Virus record (IMG/VR): IMGVR_UViG_3300042987_003051
Coordinates: 19,075 to 83,074 of that record
Reading direction: 5' to 3' (one strand)
Length of the DNA stretch: 64,000 bases
Origin: a virus
The position numbers and the translations under genes were made by a program. Shown piece after piece: positions 12,128-51,302 of the stretch (the first letter of the stretch is position 1; the number at the start of each line of letters is the position of its first letter). The notes beneath the pieces are model-generated. The model did no database searches and had not been told where the DNA came from. It worked only from the letters and a program-made list of their open reading frames with translations.

Positions 12128-14503
12128 ATGACTGCTACAATTGCTCAACAACGATCTAATAATAACTCCTGGGAACAGTTTTGCCAGTGGGTTACTTCAA
12201 CGAACAACCGCCTTTATGTTGGTTGGTTCGGTACTCTGATGATTCCAACGTTGCTTGCCGCAACGATTTGTTTCATCGTCGCCTTCATTGCTGCACCTCC
12301 TGTAGACATTGATGGCATCCGCGAACCAGTTGCTGGTTCTCTTATGTACGGAAACAACATCATTTCTGGTGCTGTTGTTCCTAGTTCTAATAGCATCGGA
12401 CTACATTTCTATCCAATCTGGGAAGCAATGAGTCTTGATGAGTGGCTTTATAAATAATATTGGGTCACTTTAAATCGGGTGAACTGCTGGAAAGCTAAGT
12501 TCTCTTATGAAACACAAACATCATCTTACTCCAAAATATCTTGGTGGGTCTGACGAACCACAAAATCTTGTAGAGGTTTCTTCAACACGACATGCTATGT
12601 TTCATTATTGTAACTGGTGTCTTTGGGGAAATGAAGAAGATAAGATTGCTTGGAGAGCACTTGCAGGTTACTCTAAAAAAGAGGAAATAATCCATCAAGT
12701 TATTTCTCTTGCAGGTAAAAAAGGTGGTAAGGTTGCAAAAGAAAGCGGACAACTTCGGTCTGCTGCTCTTAAACAACCAAAAAGTGTAAGGCAAAAGATT
12801 GGTAAAAATCTTATCAACTATGCCTACAAAAATCCTAAAAATGCTTCACAAGAAACTCTTACTAATAGAAAGTATAAGAAAGTATTTCACATTCACGAAA
12901 AACTAACTGAACGAACTATTGGTAATCATCTTGGAGATGTGATTTTTAATCCAGAAGAAGATAAAACACTTAAAACTGTTTGTTCTATTATTCTGGAAAA
13001 ATATGGGATAAAAGTTTATCCTTCACATCTTAATAGTGTTGCTAATGGAAATAGACTTTTAACGAGTGGTATTTCTTGTAGTTGGGTTTTAGAGAATACG
13101 TCAATCAGCAGCCAAGCCACAGACGCTTCTGTGGAAGGTTCAGAGACTACTGGGTTCAACAAGCGTGTTGAGTAATACCAGATTAGCGCCCGACACCTTA
13201 TAAAATAATAAGGTGAAGATATAGTCCAGTCCATATGGAAACATATGGTTCCTCCAACTGCTATAATGGAGGTCCTTATCAACTGGTAGTGTTCCACTTC
13301 CTCATTGGCGTCTTCTGCTATATGGGTCGTGAATGGGAACTTTCTTACCGACTTGGTATGCGTCCTTGGATTTTCGTTGCTTACAGTGCTCCCGTCGCTG
13401 CTGCAACTGCCGTATTCCTGGTGTATCCTTTTGGTCAAGGTTCTTTCTCTGATGGTATGCCTCTGGGTATCTCTGGTACTTTCAACTATATGCTTGTGTT
13501 CCAGGCAGAACACAACATCTTGATGCACCCATTCCATATGCTTGGAGTTGCTGGTGTGTTTGGTGGAAGTCTTTTCTCCGCAATGCATAGGGAACTGTGC
13601 CCTTGTTGAGTAATCAGCAAGTGAAAATCGGGTGAACTGCTGGAAACCTAAGTTACTAAAATGTTACTTGACTTATTATTGGTCTTGTAAAAAAGTTTAG
13701 TAATATGGTAATCAGCATCCAAGTCTTGAGTACACTCAAGAAAGGTTCAGAGACTACCTGAGGGATATAGTTCCCTTAATAACAGGTTTAAGTGCCCGAC
13801 AACCTAATACAAATGGGTTGATGATATAGTCCACACCTTATGAAAATAAGGAATAGAGGTGGGTTCCCTCGTAACCTCCTCACTAGTTCGTGAAACTACT
13901 GAAACTGAGTCTCAGAACTACGGATACAAGTTTGGTCAAGAAGAAGAAACTTATAACATCGTAGCTGCACATGGTTATTTCGGTCGCCTTATTTTCCAAT
14001 ACGCATCGTTCAATAACTCACGTTCGCTGCACTTCTTCCTTGCTGCCTGGCCTGTTGTAGGCATCTGGTTCGCTGCTCTTGGTGTTTCTACGATGGCTTT
14101 TAATCTCAACGGATTTAACTTCAACCAGTCCCTACTGTCTTCTGACGGTCGTGTGATTAACACTTGGGCAGATATTCTGAACCGTGCTAATCTTGGTTTT
14201 GAAGTGATGCACGAGCGTTTTGTGAACGCATGGCGCTCGTTAAATCGGATGAATTGCTGGAACTCTCTTGTAGACAATCAGCAGCCAAGCCTTGCAAGCG
14301 TGTAAGGAAGGTTCAGAGACTAGGCGGTGGATGACGCTTCATCCGTAATACGCCACTAGCGTCCGACACTCTTATGAGTGATGATATAGTCCGCTCCCTT
14401 TGGCGACAAAGGTTAAAACACAAGGAATGCTCACAACTTCCCACTTGATCTTGCTGCTGTTAGCAACACTCCTGTTGCCTTGACTGCTCCAACCATCGGG
14501 TGA
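12128..14503 (+). CDS. psbA: Photosystem II D1 protein, four exons separated by three group I introns
   Basis: The coding sequence is the join of 12128-12447, 13261-13588, 13862-14218 and 14426-14503. These add up to 1083 bases and 360 aa plus stop in one frame, the normal D1 length. The protein has the expected D1 sequence: [29 protein letters not shown], the QB/iron region SAMH|GSLVTSS, and the C-terminal Mn ligands in [17 protein letters not shown], with a short tail after the processing site. D1 is the fast-turnover core of photosystem II, and a phage copy keeps photosynthetic energy flowing during lysis. Introns sit after residue 106 (inside a Leu codon), after the His that binds the non-haem iron, and after the HER of the Mn site. 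The reading frame is intact, so it is not a pseudogene. Exons are more GC-rich than flanking genes. Confidence 0.95.
12449..12456 (+). promoter_or_regulatory. T4-type late promoter inside psbA intron 1
   Basis: An exact TATAAATA lies two bases into the intron and about 50 bases before the HNH start codon. In T4, intron endonucleases such as I-TevI are expressed from late promoters inside the intron; the arrangement here is comparable. Confidence 0.6.
12507..13175 (+). CDS. Intron-encoded HNH homing endonuclease
   Basis: The 222-aa product starts [20 protein letters not shown]. The [11 protein letters not shown]...[15 protein letters not shown] segment has the paired His, Asn and His spacing of an HNH nuclease. 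The middle is lysine-rich and probably binds DNA. The C-terminal 15 residues are read through the intron core, showing that coding sequence and ribozyme overlap. Such enzymes cut intron-free alleles and drive intron spread. The likely target is intron-free psbA of host or co-infecting phage. Confidence 0.85.
   Translation: MKHKHHLTPKYLGGSDEPQNLVEVSSTRHAMFHYCNWCLWGNEEDKIAWRALAGYSKKEEIIHQVISLAGKKGGKVAKESGQLRSAALKQPKSVRQKIGKNLINYAYKNPKNASQETLTNRKYKKVFHIHEKLTERTIGNHLGDVIFNPEEDKTLKTVCSIILEKYGIKVYPSHLNSVANGNRLLTSGISCSWVLENTSISSQATDASVEGSETTGFNKRVE
13589..13861 (+). ncRNA. psbA group I intron 2 (no ORF)
   Basis: The 273-base intron follows exon sequence GCAU. GUGC at 13597-13600 forms P1 with a U-G pair, and the intron ends in G at 13861. 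It carries the same core motifs as intron 1 (AAATCGGGTGAACTGCTGG, GGTTCAGAGACTACC, GTGCCCGACA, GATATAGTCC). No reading frame of note is present. Removal joins the iron-ligand His codon CAT to GGT in phase. Confidence 0.9.
14219..14425 (+). ncRNA. psbA group I intron 3 (no ORF)
   Basis: The 207-base intron follows exon sequence GAGCGU. GCGCUC at 14233-14238 gives a six-pair P1 with a U-G at the splice site, and the intron ends in G at 14425. Core motifs AAATCGGATGAATTGCTGG, GGTTCAGAGACTAGG and GATATAGTCC match the other two introns. Its size is close to the roughly 210-base psbA intron described in cyanophage S-PM2. Here too a free-standing endonuclease gene lies downstream. Confidence 0.9.
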
Positions 14504-14512
14504 TATAATAAA

Positions 14513-14570: not shown

Positions 14571-14993
14571 ATGACTAAACTATACTCCGACCTGTATAGA
14601 ACCTGTATGACCTGTGATGTTGAGAAGCACATTACAGAGTTTTATATGCGTGATAAGAAAACAGGTAGGAGGCATTCTGCCTGCAAAGAGTGTGATAAGG
14701 CAAGGGTGAAAGCAAGACATCAAGCAAACCCACAAAGAACAAGAAATAATGATCTAAAAAGAAACTATGGTATAACTCTTGAAGAACATACAAAAATGTT
14801 TGAAGATCAGAATGGGAGATGTGCTATTTGTGGAAATGAAGGAAATGGTAAGTGGAAGAAGTTATGTGTAGACCACTGCCATACAACTGGTAAAGTAAGA
14901 AAACTACTCTGTCATAACTGCAACACTGCTCTTGGACTTGTAGGAGACAACATCAGCACCCTTCAAAAAATGATAGAATACCTAAATAACTAA
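14571..14993 (+). CDS. Free-standing endonuclease VII-like HNH endonuclease (F-CphI-like)
   Basis: The 140-aa product has an N-terminal zinc-finger-like pair of CxxC motifs (CMTCDVEKHI and CKECDKAR). These are followed by the recombination endonuclease VII pattern: YGITLEEHTKMFEDQNGRC, CAICG, the catalytic VDHCHTTGKVRKLLC and CHNCNTALG. In S-PM2 the homing endonuclease F-CphI sits just downstream of the intron-containing psbA. The same position here suggests it cuts psbA near the intron 3 site. The specificity is inferred from location, not read from the sequence. Confidence 0.85.
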   Translation: MTKLYSDLYRTCMTCDVEKHITEFYMRDKKTGRRHSACKECDKARVKARHQANPQRTRNNDLKRNYGITLEEHTKMFEDQNGRCAICGNEGNGKWKKLCVDHCHTTGKVRKLLCHNCNTALGLVGDNISTLQKMIEYLNN

Positions 14994-19229: not shown

Positions 19230-19236
19230 GCATTTA

Positions 19237-19333
19237 CGTTCATCGGAGAAATCCGACGCAAGTAGGACGGCGGAACGGGACGTTCATTCGCTATTCGCAA
19301 ATAGCGAACGCAAACCGCCCGAAGGAACGGGAC
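19237..19333 (+). promoter_or_regulatory. Glutamine-II (Downstream-peptide/glnA motif) riboswitch
   Basis: The RNA has a P1 helix CGTTC (19237-19241) with GAACG (19325-19329) and a hairpin TCGGA-GAAA-TCCGA (19243-19256). The conserved GCAAGTAGG follows, then a GGCGG/CCGCC helix (19269-19273 with 19315-19319) capped by a long hairpin TTCGCTATT/AATAGCGAA, and CCGAAGGAACG at the end. These are the hallmarks I know for the Downstream-peptide/glnA glutamine-binding RNAs of cyanobacteria and their phages. It precedes a short peptide gene, as in that class, and so probably senses glutamine and controls it. Confidence 0.85.
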
Positions 19334-47500: not shown

Positions 47501-50039
47501 GAGAGCCGTAGATGATGCCTTTACATATGCGATAGATGTATATGGAAATACTGCAGAAAACGCAAGATTGAGATTTATTGATGTTCAAAGTAATGCAGAA
47601 AGAGCAACTATTGATAGATCGGGAAATTTCATTGTAGGTTCTGGATCGTCAACAGGAACAGCATCACAACCACTTCAGGTAACTGGTGGTGCTTATGTTT
47701 CTGGCAACATTGGAATTGGTGTTTTAAATCCATCAGAAAAACTTCAGGTTGCCGGTAACGTGGCACCTGATCAAAATGGAACCAGAGACTTAGGAACTCC
47801 AAGTTTAAAATGGAACAAAATTTACACCAATGAACTTGTAGGAACCATAACAGGTACCATCTCAAGTGTAAGTATTACTAATGATTCTTCAACAAATGCA
47901 ATCAGATTTATTAATTTTGCATCTACGGTTAGTGGATCCAGTAGCATTTATGGTGACGATTTATTAGTATGGAATCCAAACACAAATAGTTTAGGAATAG
48001 GAACAACAAATCCATCAATACCATTTGGTAATGTTGGTGTTCATATTAACAATGCTGGATTGAATATTCAATCAGTAGCTCCAATTATATTCTTACAAGA
48101 AATTGATAATTCAAACAATTACTATAATTTAGTTGTTGATGGTGGTATTTTTGGTGTTAGATACAATAATAATTTCCCTGGACCATTACAAGTAAATTCA
48201 AGTTCAGTTTTAATAGGTTCTGCAACATCAACAGGAACAGCATCACAACCACTTCAAGTCACTGGTGGCGCTTATGTTTCTGATAATGTTGGAATTGGAG
48301 TCACAAATCCATCAGAAAAACTTCAGGTTGCCGGTAATGTGGCACCAGATCAAAATGGAACCAGAGACTTAGGAACATCTATTCTTAAATGGAACACAGT
48401 TTATGCCAATACATTTAATGGGCAATTTATAGGAAATGCCGATACTGCTTCTAAATTAGCAACACCAAGAATTATTGCTGCAACTGATGATATTTCTTGG
48501 TCGGTTTCTTTTGATGGATCCTCAAATGTATCTTCTGCGGCAACTTTATCAAACACCGGAGTAATCGCAGGAACTTATGGTTCTTCAACACAGGTTGGTG
48601 TGGTAACCGTAGATGCAAAGGGTAGAATTACTTCAGCATCTAATGTTTCAATTGCCTTCACTAATGCAACCGTAGCCAGAGCAGGATATGCGGACAGTGC
48701 AGGTATAGCAACTAATCTTAGAGGTGGTACTGCATATCAAATTCCATATCAATCTGCAGTAAACACAACTGCATTTATAGCAAATGGTACTGTTACTGGA
48801 CAATTACTTCAATATAATAGTTCGGCAGCACCATCTTGGGTAAACCCTTCTGGTTTAACTGTATCTAGAGCTGGATATGCAGACACTGCAGGTATAGCAA
48901 CTAATCTTAGAGGTGGTTCTCCTGGTTCAATTCCTTATCAATCTTCTTCCAATGTAACAACTTTTCTAAATGATCCTAATGTAAATGGAGCTATTTTAAC
49001 CTGGAATGATTCAAGTTCACAACCGTCTTGGACTTCTGCGACTAATTTCACTGCTGGATTTGCATCATATGCTACTAAAGCAGGATTAGCAACTGATGTA
49101 GAACTTAATGGATCAGGACAACTTCTTTATCAACCCGGAAATAACAATACCGAATTGTTATCATTCGGTTCTGCTGGACAAATACTTCAATCTAATGGTA
49201 CAGGAGCAGCTCCTAGTTGGGTTAATTTAAGTGGATTAACTGCTGGATTTGCATCATATGCTACTAAAGCAGGATTAGCAACTGATGTAGAACTTAATGG
49301 ATCAGGACAACTTCTTTATCAACCCGGAAATAACAATACCGAATTGTTATCATTCGGTTCTGCTGGACAAATACTTCGTTCTAATGGTACGGGAGCAGCT
49401 CCTAGTTGGATAACTTTAGGATCTTCTGTAGGTGCCGCAATTAGTGGACTTACAATTAGGGATGAGGGAACTATAACTCCTTCGGGTGGTGTGGGTGTTA
49501 TTACCACTATTAATTTTGTTGGTTCTGGGATTACGGTTGTTGGTAGTTCTTCTGGTATTGCTACTGTAACATTTCTTGGAGATCAAATACTAGAAGGCAC
49601 AATTAAATCTACTGACACTACAACACAAACCTCTTTATATCCAGTGATGGTGAGTACTGTTGGAGTTGCGACAACTGCTTGGACATCTTCAACAAAATTA
49701 TCTTTTAATGCAGTTACAGGACAAATTAATGCAGTTGATTTTAACTCTACATCAGATCAAACATTGAAAACCAATATTAAACCTATTTTATCTCCTCTTG
49801 AAAAGGTATCACAAATTAACGGAGTGACATTTAATTGGATTGAAGGTAATATACCTTCAATAGGAGTTATTGCTCAACAAGTCGAAAAGGTATTTCCAGA
49901 ACTTGTAACTACAACAAGTGAATATAAATCTGTTAGATATAATGGATTGATTGGATTATTAATAGAAGCAATTAAGGAACAGCAAATGCAAATAGAGGAC
50001 CTTAAATTGCAACTTGAAGACTTAAAATCTAACACTTGA
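44505..50039 (+). CDS. Giant tail fibre with S74 intramolecular chaperone
   Basis: The 1844-aa product is a repeat-built fibre (SVSITNDSSTNAIRFISFAS, GIGVTNPSEKLQVAGNVAPD and ATKAGLATDVELNGSGQLLY units). Its C-terminus is a peptidase S74 chaperone: the STSDQTLKTNIKPI start with the Ser/Lys dyad region, GVTFNWIEGNIPSIGVIAQQ, and a coiled-coil tail (IKEQQMQIEDLKLQLEDL). S74 domains trimerise the fibre and then cleave themselves off. It probably binds host LPS. A sigma70-like promoter overlaps its stop codon. Confidence 0.85.
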   Translation: MAKYLSGRSKRTPQSALSDERYRYLSVGDAEPNFGDPIFPGDFPPFGQQYQIVSVEGYPGERYWVPIGGGVIPGSISVFDEGNLVGGSNSTTEINFVGAAITVIGISGPPPGTGVTVTVFAPGNNSEILFNTFNDFSTSPKLKFDNSTGSLIAGDRIIVGVGGTVITTTGVGSVGIGTINPTQELHLHGDFRITGTIYDYLNSPGSPTQLIAKNNFGGITWVDQGTVRSAAGGTVGNVQYHNSVGLVDGASNFVFDEFNNRIGIGSTIPTVLFDVLGYSKFTGQTQIDNLNVTGIATLKNLGVSGLTTTRDLQVYESTLLNRLKVSGISTFDSQVIINNLNVTGVGTFDNIKLDTNTVSTNVGNLIIDSSGGTTQINDIVYINDYTQSINSNTGALVVEGGVGIGSQLNVDGAVKLATLGGITTTGGDLYVAGNLYVNNDIFYDELFVRNGYFTGIVSTKDLLVTGVATIATLGVSGLTTTRTLRVTGISTFDDFIDANGGAYIDNIQIGITDNNEIDTSSGNLTIDSAGGLTTIDDRLFVTGISTFNANTVFNANVTLGNNVGGDTVSFGSSVNTNIIPQSTDTYDLGQSDSLRWRTIYAQTFSGKFIGNADTASQIATATTTGISSYFLTFVDSNNSPASYETLYTDSGITYTPSNDLLTVGKLVVTGISTFENTSTFNGITTFTNNVFIGNSNTDKVSFAATVDSNIIPSGIRDLGSITNRWDKFYVNEIVGTVTGTISSVSITNDSSTNAIRFISFASTVSGSSSIYGDTNLTFNPSNDTVSIGGSLGIGNANPGTRLDVTGNVRLSGSVPEIELNTGGPRFRVPSSNTLTVHTGGGLSSGTNEVIRINATGVGIETSTPRYKLHVIGDTNITGLTSLGGNLVPTGNGTQDIGLPDRKWNKFYVNELVGTITGTISSVSITNDTSTAGNPIRFISFASTFSGSSSVYGDSLLTFNPTSNSLGIGVANPTAPLDVAGRVFLRRNDTLFEGGEIAFARAVDDAFTYAIDVYGNTAENARLRFIDVQSNAERATIDRSGNFIVGSGSSTGTASQPLQVTGGAYVSGNIGIGVLNPSEKLQVAGNVAPDQNGTRDLGTPSLKWNKIYTNELVGTITGTISSVSITNDSSTNAIRFINFASTVSGSSSIYGDDLLVWNPNTNSLGIGTTNPSIPFGNVGVHINNAGLNIQSVAPIIFLQEIDNSNNYYNLVVDGGIFGVRYNNNFPGPLQVNSSSVLIGSATSTGTASQPLQVTGGAYVSDNVGIGVTNPSEKLQVAGNVAPDQNGTRDLGTSILKWNTVYANTFNGQFIGNADTASKLATPRIIAATDDISWSVSFDGSSNVSSAATLSNTGVIAGTYGSSTQVGVVTVDAKGRITSASNVSIAFTNATVARAGYADSAGIATNLRGGTAYQIPYQSAVNTTAFIANGTVTGQLLQYNSSAAPSWVNPSGLTVSRAGYADTAGIATNLRGGSPGSIPYQSSSNVTTFLNDPNVNGAILTWNDSSSQPSWTSATNFTAGFASYATKAGLATDVELNGSGQLLYQPGNNNTELLSFGSAGQILQSNGTGAAPSWVNLSGLTAGFASYATKAGLATDVELNGSGQLLYQPGNNNTELLSFGSAGQILRSNGTGAAPSWITLGSSVGAAISGLTIRDEGTITPSGGVGVITTINFVGSGITVVGSSSGIATVTFLGDQILEGTIKSTDTTTQTSLYPVMVSTVGVATTAWTSSTKLSFNAVTGQINAVDFNSTSDQTLKTNIKPILSPLEKVSQINGVTFNWIEGNIPSIGVIAQQVEKVFPELVTTTSEYKSVRYNGLIGLLIEAIKEQQMQIEDLKLQLEDLKSNT
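49051..49409 (+). repeat. Near-identical 170-base duplication in the giant fibre gene
   Basis: Bases 49051-49220 and 49240-49409, offset by 189 bases (63 codons), differ at only a few positions. They encode the unit with ATKAGLATDVELNGSGQLLY. It is a recent in-frame duplication. Confidence 0.9.
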
Positions 50040-50064
50040 CAATCCCCTAAGAACCTGCTATGAT
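50036..50064 (+). promoter_or_regulatory. Sigma70-like promoter for the small-ORF/tRNA island
   Basis: TTGACA (50036-50041) overlaps the stop codon of the fibre gene and TATGAT (50059-50064) follows after 17 bases. It could transcribe two small genes and the tRNA genes. Confidence 0.8.
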
Positions 50065-50090
50065 ACTCAGGTAATCACGAAACGAACTGA

Positions 50091-50273
50091 ATGAAAGATG
50101 AGTACCTCACACGATGCGTCGTTGACCCACTGAAAAGAACGGTATATCTTTATTCTAGTGAGGGGTCAGAAAAAGAAGTGTCCTGTGAGACCGTTGATGA
50201 GTTTATGAACGTGCTAAACTTTGTTCGTGCTACATTGGATGAGGATACACTCTCATACACAAATCCACTTTAA
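50091..50273 (+). CDS. Small hypothetical protein
   Basis: The 60-aa product (MKDEYLTRCVVDPLKRTVYL...) ends VRATLDEDTLSYTNPL. A compact alpha/beta fold is plausible. It directly follows a good promoter. No function is recognised. Confidence 0.55.
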   Translation: MKDEYLTRCVVDPLKRTVYLYSSEGSEKEVSCETVDEFMNVLNFVRATLDEDTLSYTNPL

Positions 50274-50336
50274 AATCCATTTTTGGTCGAAAAAATTTCC
50301 GGTAAATTTTCTTACGCGATACTTTTTTAAAATTGT

Positions 50337-50543
50337 ATGAATTTATACAAAATTAACTATAAAAACCTTAAAGAGGAGATTGTAAAGACAACTCCTCAAA
50401 ACGTTCAGGAAGCAAATGAGGGTTTGTTTTATGCTAAAATGAATCTTCCTGAAGCAGCAAAACACTGTGGAATGTCACAAAAAGAAATGCGCTTGACATT
50501 CTTTGAGTACCTCAAGTATAATCCTATCACGTACAAAGCGTGA
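50337..50543 (+). CDS. Small protein with helix-turn-helix-like region
   Basis: The 68-aa product has AKMNLPEAAKHCGMSQKEMR near residue 33, which resembles a helix-turn-helix with A, G and hydrophobic spacing. It could bind DNA; confidence is limited by length. The tRNA-Leu gene begins eight bases after its stop. Confidence 0.55.
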   Translation: MNLYKINYKNLKEEIVKTTPQNVQEANEGLFYAKMNLPEAAKHCGMSQKEMRLTFFEYLKYNPITYKA

Positions 50544-50550
50544 TTTTTAT

Positions 50551-50895
50551 GCGAGTATGGTGGAATCGGTAGACACACCAGACTTATTGTAAAATTGAGC
50601 CTCATTTGGGAAACCTTATGAGTGTAATTCCTCAAATTCGGTGAAACCTTTAAAATGGCAATACCGAGCGAAGTTGCAAGACAGTTGGAAAGACAACGGC
50701 TACCCAATGTGCTTCTAGAGAGGGTTGGAATTATCTAGAAAATGCAAAACGTGTAGAGACTAGACGGGGAACACCTAAACCGAAAGGTATGGTGAAGGTA
50801 TAGTCCAGACCACAAACCGAAAGGGTAGTGAAAACTATAGTGGTACGAAAATCTGTTGGGCATTGCCCGTGGGAGTTCAAGTCTCCCTACTCGCA
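50551..50895 (+). tRNA. trnL: tRNA-Leu(UAA) interrupted by a group I intron
   Basis: The exons 50551-50585 and 50848-50895 fold as a class II tRNA. The acceptor stem is GCGAGTA with TACTCGC, a Leu-type D arm (GTGGAATCGGTAGACAC) follows, and the anticodon loop reads CTTAAAA after joining. The long variable arm is TGGGC-ATT-GCCCG and the T arm GGGAG-TTCAAGT-CTCCC. The anticodon UAA reads UUA codons, which are frequent in this AT-rich genome. The CCA end is not encoded. The intron lies between U34 and A35, the classical cyanobacterial and plastid trnL position. Confidence 0.92.
50586..50847 (+). ncRNA. Group I intron in tRNA-Leu(UAA)
   Basis: The 262-base intron follows exon ...GACTT and ends in G at 50847. 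The internal guide in ATTGAGCC (GAG) pairs with exon CUU, with a U-G at the splice site. Core motifs include GTAGAGACTAGACGGG (P7, near 50752) and GGTATAGTCCAGACC (near 50796). The P7 motif is closer to the cyanobacterial trnL intron than to the psbA introns in this window. There is no ORF. Confidence 0.9.
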
Positions 50896-50942
50896 CTAGA
50901 GAATTTAATCTTCTCTAAATAATCAAAAGTAGGAAATGTCCT

Positions 50943-51213: not shown

Positions 51214-51284
51214 GCCTCTAAAGCATTGTGGTGATGCACCGCTCTTGTAAAGCGGAGACGACAGTTCAATTCTGTCTAGGGGCT
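51214..51284 (+). tRNA. trnT: tRNA-Thr(UGU)
   Basis: The acceptor stem GCCTCTA pairs with TAGGGGC. The D arm is GCAT...ATGC and the anticodon stem CCGCT/AGCGG encloses CTTGTAA with anticodon TGT. The T arm is GACAG-TTCAATT-CTGTC. The CCA end is not encoded. It reads ACA codons, common in this AT-rich genome. Confidence 0.9.
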
Positions 51285-51302
51285 CTGAGTTTTAAACTCC
51301 AA

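What the first reader, a model, noticed from the sequence alone, without database searches (positions are those of the whole stretch)
50551..50895. Phage tRNA-Leu(UAA) with a group I intron at the ancient trnL site
The two exons fold into a complete class II tRNA-Leu. The intron interrupts the anticodon after U34, exactly where cyanobacterial and plastid trnL introns sit, and its core (GTAGAGACTAGACGGG, ATTGAGCC) resembles those. I know of no well-described phage with such an intron; it could mark transfer between hosts and phages and a route by which trnL introns spread.
Basis: partly seen in the sequence, partly recalled or inferred. Interest (0 to 1): 0.9.

Follow-up and report, generated by a model that had tools for sequence, protein, structure and literature searches.

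The report
Cyanophage tRNA-Leu split by ribozyme intron
A virus of cyanobacteria carries a leucine tRNA gene cut in two by a self-splicing RNA intron, and related viruses turn out to be full of such split tRNA genes, which standard software misses and which a 2014 review said phages did not have; the intron is not the ancient plant/cyanobacterial one but a mobile cousin.

Summary
Window 50551-50896 is tRNA-Leu(UAA) with a 262-nt group I intron (50586-50847) exactly between U34 and A35. ARAGORN's intron mode joins the exons, Rfam's group I model matches at E=3.5e-13, and 52 base pairs covary across 17 phage introns. The record is a cyanophage (psbA, Synechococcus-phage tail genes).

In trees the window intron lies outside the ancient cyanobacterial trnL clade (58 of 60 sampled cyanobacterial trnL introns; split support 95-99/100). 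It carries 0 of 11 cyanobacterial trnL-diagnostic bases and sits with phage and proteobacterial/acidobacterial tRNA introns. The exons are 96% identical to an intronless cyanophage tRNA-Leu (at most 82% to cyanobacterial ones), and an intronless phage allele exists at the same locus. So the intron was inserted into a phage tRNA rather than captured with a host gene.

It is not unique: about 75 viral contigs carry tRNA-Leu introns, and Agrobacterium phage Atu_ph07, Gordonia phage Daredevil and 595-735 kb huge phages carry tRNA introns too. Some phage tRNA-Leu introns encode an HNH endonuclease in P6, suggesting homing. A 2014 review placed all phage introns in protein genes; I found no later report in the held literature. 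Splicing is inferred, not shown.

The parts
50551..50585 (+). 5' exon of tRNA-Leu(UAA), acceptor 5' strand to U34
   Evidence: ARAGORN -i; 96.4% joined-exon identity to intronless tRNA-Leu of cyanophage S-TIM5
50586..50847 (+). group I intron, 262 nt, ends in omega-G (50847)
   Evidence: RF00028 E=3.5e-13; boundaries; covariation
50848..50896 (+). 3' exon: A35, A36, long variable arm, T arm, acceptor 3' strand
   Evidence: ARAGORN -i
50583..50599 (+). P1: exon CUU (50583-50585) with intron GAG (50597-50599); U34.G at the 5' splice site
   Evidence: pairs 45-47/59-61 of A7, U.G in 16/16
50601..50622 (+). P2 hairpin with GAAA loop
   Evidence: 5 of 7 pairs changed on both sides in some sequences
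50628..50633 (+). P3 5' strand (UUCCUC), pairs with 50766-50771 (GGGGAA), pseudoknot with P7
   Evidence: 4 of 6 pairs with two-sided changes, 98% paired
50638..50667 (+). P4-P5
   Evidence: P4 100% paired, UA/GC covariation
50668..50752 (+). P6 (50668-50670 with 50750-50752) and a 79-nt P6 extension (50671-50749) that encodes no recognisable protein
   Evidence: C-G to G-C compensatory change in P6; the extension sits where related introns carry an HNH gene but shows no detectable similarity to it; its fold is not better than shuffles
50758..50805 (+). P7 (50758-50762 with 50801-50805) enclosing P3 3' strand and P8 (50772-50794)
   Evidence: P7 100% paired with AU/UA covariation
50809..50844 (+). 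P9 region (ACCAC 50809-50813 with GUGGU 50840-50844) and inner hairpin
51214..51285 (+). tRNA-Thr(UGU), intronless neighbouring phage tRNA

Best explanation
This is a cyanophage tRNA-Leu(UAA) gene interrupted by an ORF-less group I ribozyme of the bacterial tRNA-intron type. The precursor folds so that the exon CUU pairs with the intron GAG (U34.G at the 5' splice site) while the exons stay paired in the anticodon stem. A guanosine cofactor bound in P7 attacks after U34, U34 then attacks after the terminal G (50847), and the exons join to UAA, giving a mature class II tRNA-Leu for phage translation. The intron belongs to a mobile lineage that circulates among phage tRNA genes, some copies with an HNH homing endonuclease in P6. 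The window copy has no endonuclease and presumably moves by recombination or by an endonuclease in trans. Shown: gene structure, covariation, precise empty site, spread to unrelated phage loci, HNH genes in relatives. Inferred: self-splicing, tRNA function, homing.
For: Structure and covariation. tRNA is phage-derived: joined exons 96.4% identical to the intronless tRNA-Leu of S-TIM5 and similar to hundreds of cyanophage records, against at most 82% in 292 cyanobacterial genomes. Empty site: window aligns collinearly over 916 bp (79%) with intronless phage locus L297; intron-containing L106 aligns with L297 at 92.5% over 920 bp with only the intron missing. Mobility: introns 97% identical to the window's, including the P6 extension, lie in phage contigs whose flanks do not align at all. 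HNH genes inside P6 of tRNA-Leu introns of phages L071, L081, L016, L399 and Bacilli MAG L149, with more. Lineage. Anticodon-stem pairs covary in the exons of intron-bearing tRNAs, as expected if the mature tRNAs are under selection.
Against: No RNA evidence of splicing. The mature tRNA has a C27-U43 mismatch (also in intronless relatives). Exons of the 97%-identical introns are also nearly identical, so the moving unit may be the whole tRNA, or exons co-converted with the intron. Deep branches of the tree are poorly resolved, and the AU test does not reject the window intron as sister to the cyanobacterial trnL clade on an unrooted tree (p=0.53).
Confidence: 0.85

Rival explanations
1. The intron descends from the ancient cyanobacterial/plastid trnL intron and was captured from the host's tRNA-Leu gene.
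For: Same gene and same U34/A35 insertion site; cyanobacterial host; AU test on an unrooted tree cannot exclude a sister position.
Against: Cyanobacterial trnL clade excludes it with 99/100, 100/100 and 95/100; 66% identity at best and 0/11 diagnostic bases; exons are phage-type, not host-type; many small cyanobacterial genomes show an uninterrupted tRNA-Leu(UAA)-like match.
Confidence: 0.07
2. Degenerate pseudo-tRNA or dead intron: a passenger that no longer splices.
For: C27-U43 mismatch; no expression data; a 79-nt P6 extension with no special folding stability.
Against: All core helices intact with compensatory changes, including P6 C-G to G-C shared with the extended group; terminal G and U.G conserved; extension nearly identical in nine other contigs; acceptor stems differ but stay paired (L541).
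Confidence: 0.07
3. Regulatory role: the intron delays tRNA maturation so that tRNA-Leu appears late in infection or depends on GTP/Mg2+ levels.
For: Only that phage introns persist in a compact genome; the same phage has three group I introns in psbA.
Against: No direct evidence; presence/absence polymorphism at the same locus fits a neutral mobile element.
Confidence: 0.05

Closest known systems
Cyanobacterial and plastid trnL(UAA) group I intron (Anabaena type)
   Same: Same tRNA, same U34/A35 position, same core helices and short P1 relying on the anticodon stem
   Different: Separate clade; diagnostic bases in P4, P6-P8 and the 3' end differ; here it lies in a phage-lineage tRNA
Proteobacterial tRNA introns (tRNA-Arg(CCU); tRNA-Ile of Azoarcus, the latter from memory)
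   Same: Core sequence type (GTAGAGACTAGACGGG, GGTATAGTCCAGACCACAAAC...GTGGTA.G), up to 84% core identity
   Different: Different tRNA and insertion position; cellular, not phage
Phage group I introns in protein genes (T4 td, SPO1, Twort, psbA of cyanophages; review PMC3984707)
   Same: Phage-borne self-splicing introns, often with homing endonucleases
   Different: Those reviewed are all in protein-coding genes; this one and its relatives are in tRNA genes
Microcoleus phage My-WqHQDG tRNA-Arg (OR578706)
   Same: Phage tRNA deposited as a 286-nt gene; holds a related intron
   Different: tRNA-Arg(CCU), other position; no discussion of it found

Membership tests
Group I intron | P3-P9 core with P3/P7 pseudoknot | tested here: met
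   RF00028 above gathering score; all helices 89-100% paired with covariation
Group I intron | U.G at 5' splice site and terminal G | tested here: met
   U34.G in 16/16, G50847 invariant
Group I intron | Guanosine-dependent self-splicing | not testable with these tools
   needs RNA
tRNA-Leu(UAA) | Class II cloverleaf with anticodon UAA after splicing | tested here: met
   ARAGORN; one C27-U43 mismatch
Cyanobacterial/plastid trnL intron lineage | Insertion between U34 and A35 of tRNA-Leu(UAA) | tested here: met
Cyanobacterial/plastid trnL intron lineage | Falls within the clade of cyanobacterial trnL introns | tested here: not met
   plastid introns were not available
Cyanobacterial/plastid trnL intron lineage | Shared diagnostic bases | tested here: not met
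   0 of 11
Mobile (homing) intron | Encodes a homing endonuclease | tested here: not met
   No endonuclease frame in the intron; P6 extension shows no similarity to the HNH genes of relatives
Mobile (homing) intron | Presence/absence at the same site and near-identity across unrelated loci | tested here: met
   exons move with it or are co-converted

The most novel reading that the evidence does not exclude
Phage tRNA genes are a large, overlooked reservoir of mobile tRNA group I introns with their own HNH homing endonucleases that cut at the anticodon, and phages are the vehicle behind the patchy, polyphyletic tRNA introns of bacteria, including the non-ancestral trnL introns of some cyanobacteria.
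Probability: 0.4. Interest if true: 0.8.

Novelty: new variant of a known kind. Interest (0 to 1): 0.62.

Why it matters
A standard review (PMC3984707) states that all phage introns known then lie in protein-coding genes despite many phage tRNAs. Here split tRNA genes prove common in phages (about 75 viral contigs for tRNA-Leu alone, others in Lys, Arg, Met and Glu/Gln-type tRNAs, plus cultured phages), and tRNAscan-SE says it was not designed to find them (PMC8450103), so phage tRNA inventories are undercounted. The HNH-bearing copies make the old question of how tRNA introns spread between bacteria directly testable.

Tried and rejected
HEG relic in the P6 extension: DNA and translated alignments no better than shuffles. 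Twintron: the two core hits in 670-700 nt introns are two halves split by an HNH gene, not two introns. Recent host-to-phage transfer: best phage-cell core identities are about 87% apart from L019 (96.7%), whose tRNA-Arg(CCU) exons match alphaproteobacterial genes exactly, probably a prophage edge or bacterial contig. AU test of window plus cyanobacterial trnL: uninformative without a root. Near-DNA search of the window's tail region found no close phage record. ARAGORN anticodon calls such as tRNA-Tyr(ata) are mis-parsed Leu(UAA) introns, corrected by splice-joining.

Full report
OBSERVATION. The window is 64 kb of an 83,074-base virus record. Default ARAGORN reports only tRNA-Thr. With introns allowed it reports one further gene in the whole window, tRNA-Leu(taa) 50551-50896 with a 262-nt intron, junction gactt|intron|aaaat, i.e. 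between U34 and A35. Rfam's group I model matches at 61.6 bits, E=3.5e-13 for the whole window. I aligned 17 distinct phage tRNA-Leu introns with exon ends (A7) and counted P1-P9 plus the exon anticodon stem: 97.1% of cells paired, 24 of 52 pairs with two-sided changes, 0 of 500 shuffles as good, and slid partners only 26-43% paired. Contig L111 carries the identical locus.

THE GENOME IS A CYANOPHAGE. It carries psbA with a PhotoRC-II leader, tail and baseplate genes, and a tail protein 47.5% identical to Synechococcus phage B23.

THE tRNA IS THE PHAGE'S OWN. The joined exons are 96.4% identical to the intronless tRNA-Leu of cyanophage S-TIM5 and resemble those of about 280 cyanophage records. 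In 292 cyanobacterial genomes the best match is 82%. At least 120 viral contigs carry the exact uninterrupted junction. Window and intronless contig L297 align collinearly over 916 bp across the site (79%), and the intron-bearing L106 aligns with L297 over 920 bp at 92.5% with only the intron missing. The intron was therefore gained (or lost) precisely within a phage tRNA at one locus.

THE INTRON IS NOT THE ANCIENT trnL INTRON. I built a covariance model (R1) and collected introns from viral contigs, bacterial genomes, and a 292-genome cyanobacterial sample, of which 84 had a match. Trees of the core separate cyanobacterial trnL introns (36 of 36) from the window, phage and bacterial introns with 99/100 support and a long branch. 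A reduced set gives 100/100, and a denser one 95/100 with 58 of 60. The window intron sits with phage, proteobacterial and acidobacterial tRNA introns: core identity 91% to phage tRNA-Leu, 84% to a gammaproteobacterial tRNA-Arg intron, 78% to bacterial tRNA-Leu, 66% to the best cyanobacterial tRNA-Leu, and 0 of 11 diagnostic bases of the latter. Two cyanobacterial trnL introns (L441, L444) fall in the mixed phage/bacterial cluster next to Agrobacterium phage Atu_ph07, which fits the literature title that cyanobacterial trnL introns are polyphyletic (Rudi and Jakobsen 1997, seen only as a reference). Limits: about 150-176 columns, rough bootstraps, no plastid introns, and an unrooted AU test that does not exclude a sister relation to the cyanobacterial clade.

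IT IS ONE OF MANY. Splice-joining each hit and re-running ARAGORN gave 75 tRNA-Leu(UAA) genes interrupted after U34 in viral records (window included) and further viral introns in Lys(UUU), Arg(UCU), Met(CAU) and Glu/Gln-like tRNAs. Some contigs are large (280-543 kb) with several introns each. Described phages also carry them, unannotated: Agrobacterium phage Atu_ph07 tRNA-Leu, Gordonia phage Daredevil tRNA-Lys, huge phages LR756501 and LR756511 tRNA-Leu. Microcoleus phage My-WqHQDG has a deposited 286-nt tRNA-Arg. The papers on Atu_ph07 and the huge phages do not use the word intron in the text held. Some IMG/VR contigs may be bacterial or prophage edges (L019 probably is), so counts of carriers are approximate.

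MOBILITY. Introns 97% identical to the window's, down to the P6 extension, lie in phage contigs whose 1-1.5 kb flanks show no similarity. The tRNA exons are also near identical, so either the tRNA travels with the intron or exons are co-converted; in L541 the acceptor stem differs but remains paired. Phage tRNA-Leu introns of 670-700 nt (L016, L071, L081, LR756511/L399) and Bacilli MAG introns (L149, L171) hold an HNH endonuclease gene in P6 (Pfam PF01844 above its cut-off in L071, L016, L399 and L149, below it in L081); related HNH genes in viral contigs include further split tRNA genes (L462, L469). The window's 79-nt P6 extension is at the same place but shows no detectable descent from such a gene.

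MECHANISM. Shown: gene anatomy, conserved ribozyme fold, empty site, dispersal. From established knowledge of group I introns: guanosine attack after U34, exon ligation at G50847, anticodon-stem pairing assisting P1. Inferred: the mature tRNA-Leu serves phage translation, and the family spreads by HNH homing at the anticodon, the window copy being an endonuclease-free derivative or one moved in trans.

NOVELTY. [quoted passage not shown] tRNAscan-SE 2.0 states it was not designed to detect group I introns in tRNAs (PMC8450103). A 2025 database paper mentions viral introns mainly as IA2 and does not mention phage tRNAs (PMC11835236). Ten searches of open-access papers found no report of phage tRNA introns, but subscription papers and preprints were not searchable. 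I rate it a new variant of a known kind: a known ribozyme class in a setting recorded as absent, with an unexpected lineage.

Noticed in passing
12128-14510: psbA (D1) of this phage is split into four exons by three group I introns (Rfam 12985-13248, 13578-13852, 14179-14413); the first holds a 222-aa homing-endonuclease-like ORF (12507-13175). Published cyanophage psbA genes I know or found have one intron.
   Followed up: partly
14571-14993: Endonuclease VII-like ORF directly after psbA, recalling the free-standing homing endonuclease F-CphI of S-PM2 (PMC6083498 abstract).
   Followed up: no
L399:1496-2065, L071:809-1255, L081:7179-7640, L016:9201-9686: HNH endonuclease genes inside P6 of phage tRNA-Leu group I introns.
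   Followed up: partly
L149, L171: Bacilli MAGs with HNH-bearing tRNA-Leu introns like those of phages; chromosomal or prophage origin not checked.
   Followed up: no
L048:3551-5017 and L110: Three intron-bearing tRNA genes within 1.5 kb in a 280-kb and a 143-kb viral contig.
   Followed up: no
L441, L444: Two cyanobacterial trnL introns that group with phage and proteobacterial introns rather than with the ancient cyanobacterial clade.
   Followed up: partly
L393:2500-2653: Pelagibacter phage HTVC120P has a related intron between two annotated capsid-protein fragments.
   Followed up: no
19235-19333: Glutamine (glnA) riboswitch match above Rfam cut-off.
   Followed up: no
about 49050-50550: A 170-bp direct repeat at 98% identity upstream of the tRNA-Leu gene (off-diagonal self-hits).
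   Followed up: no
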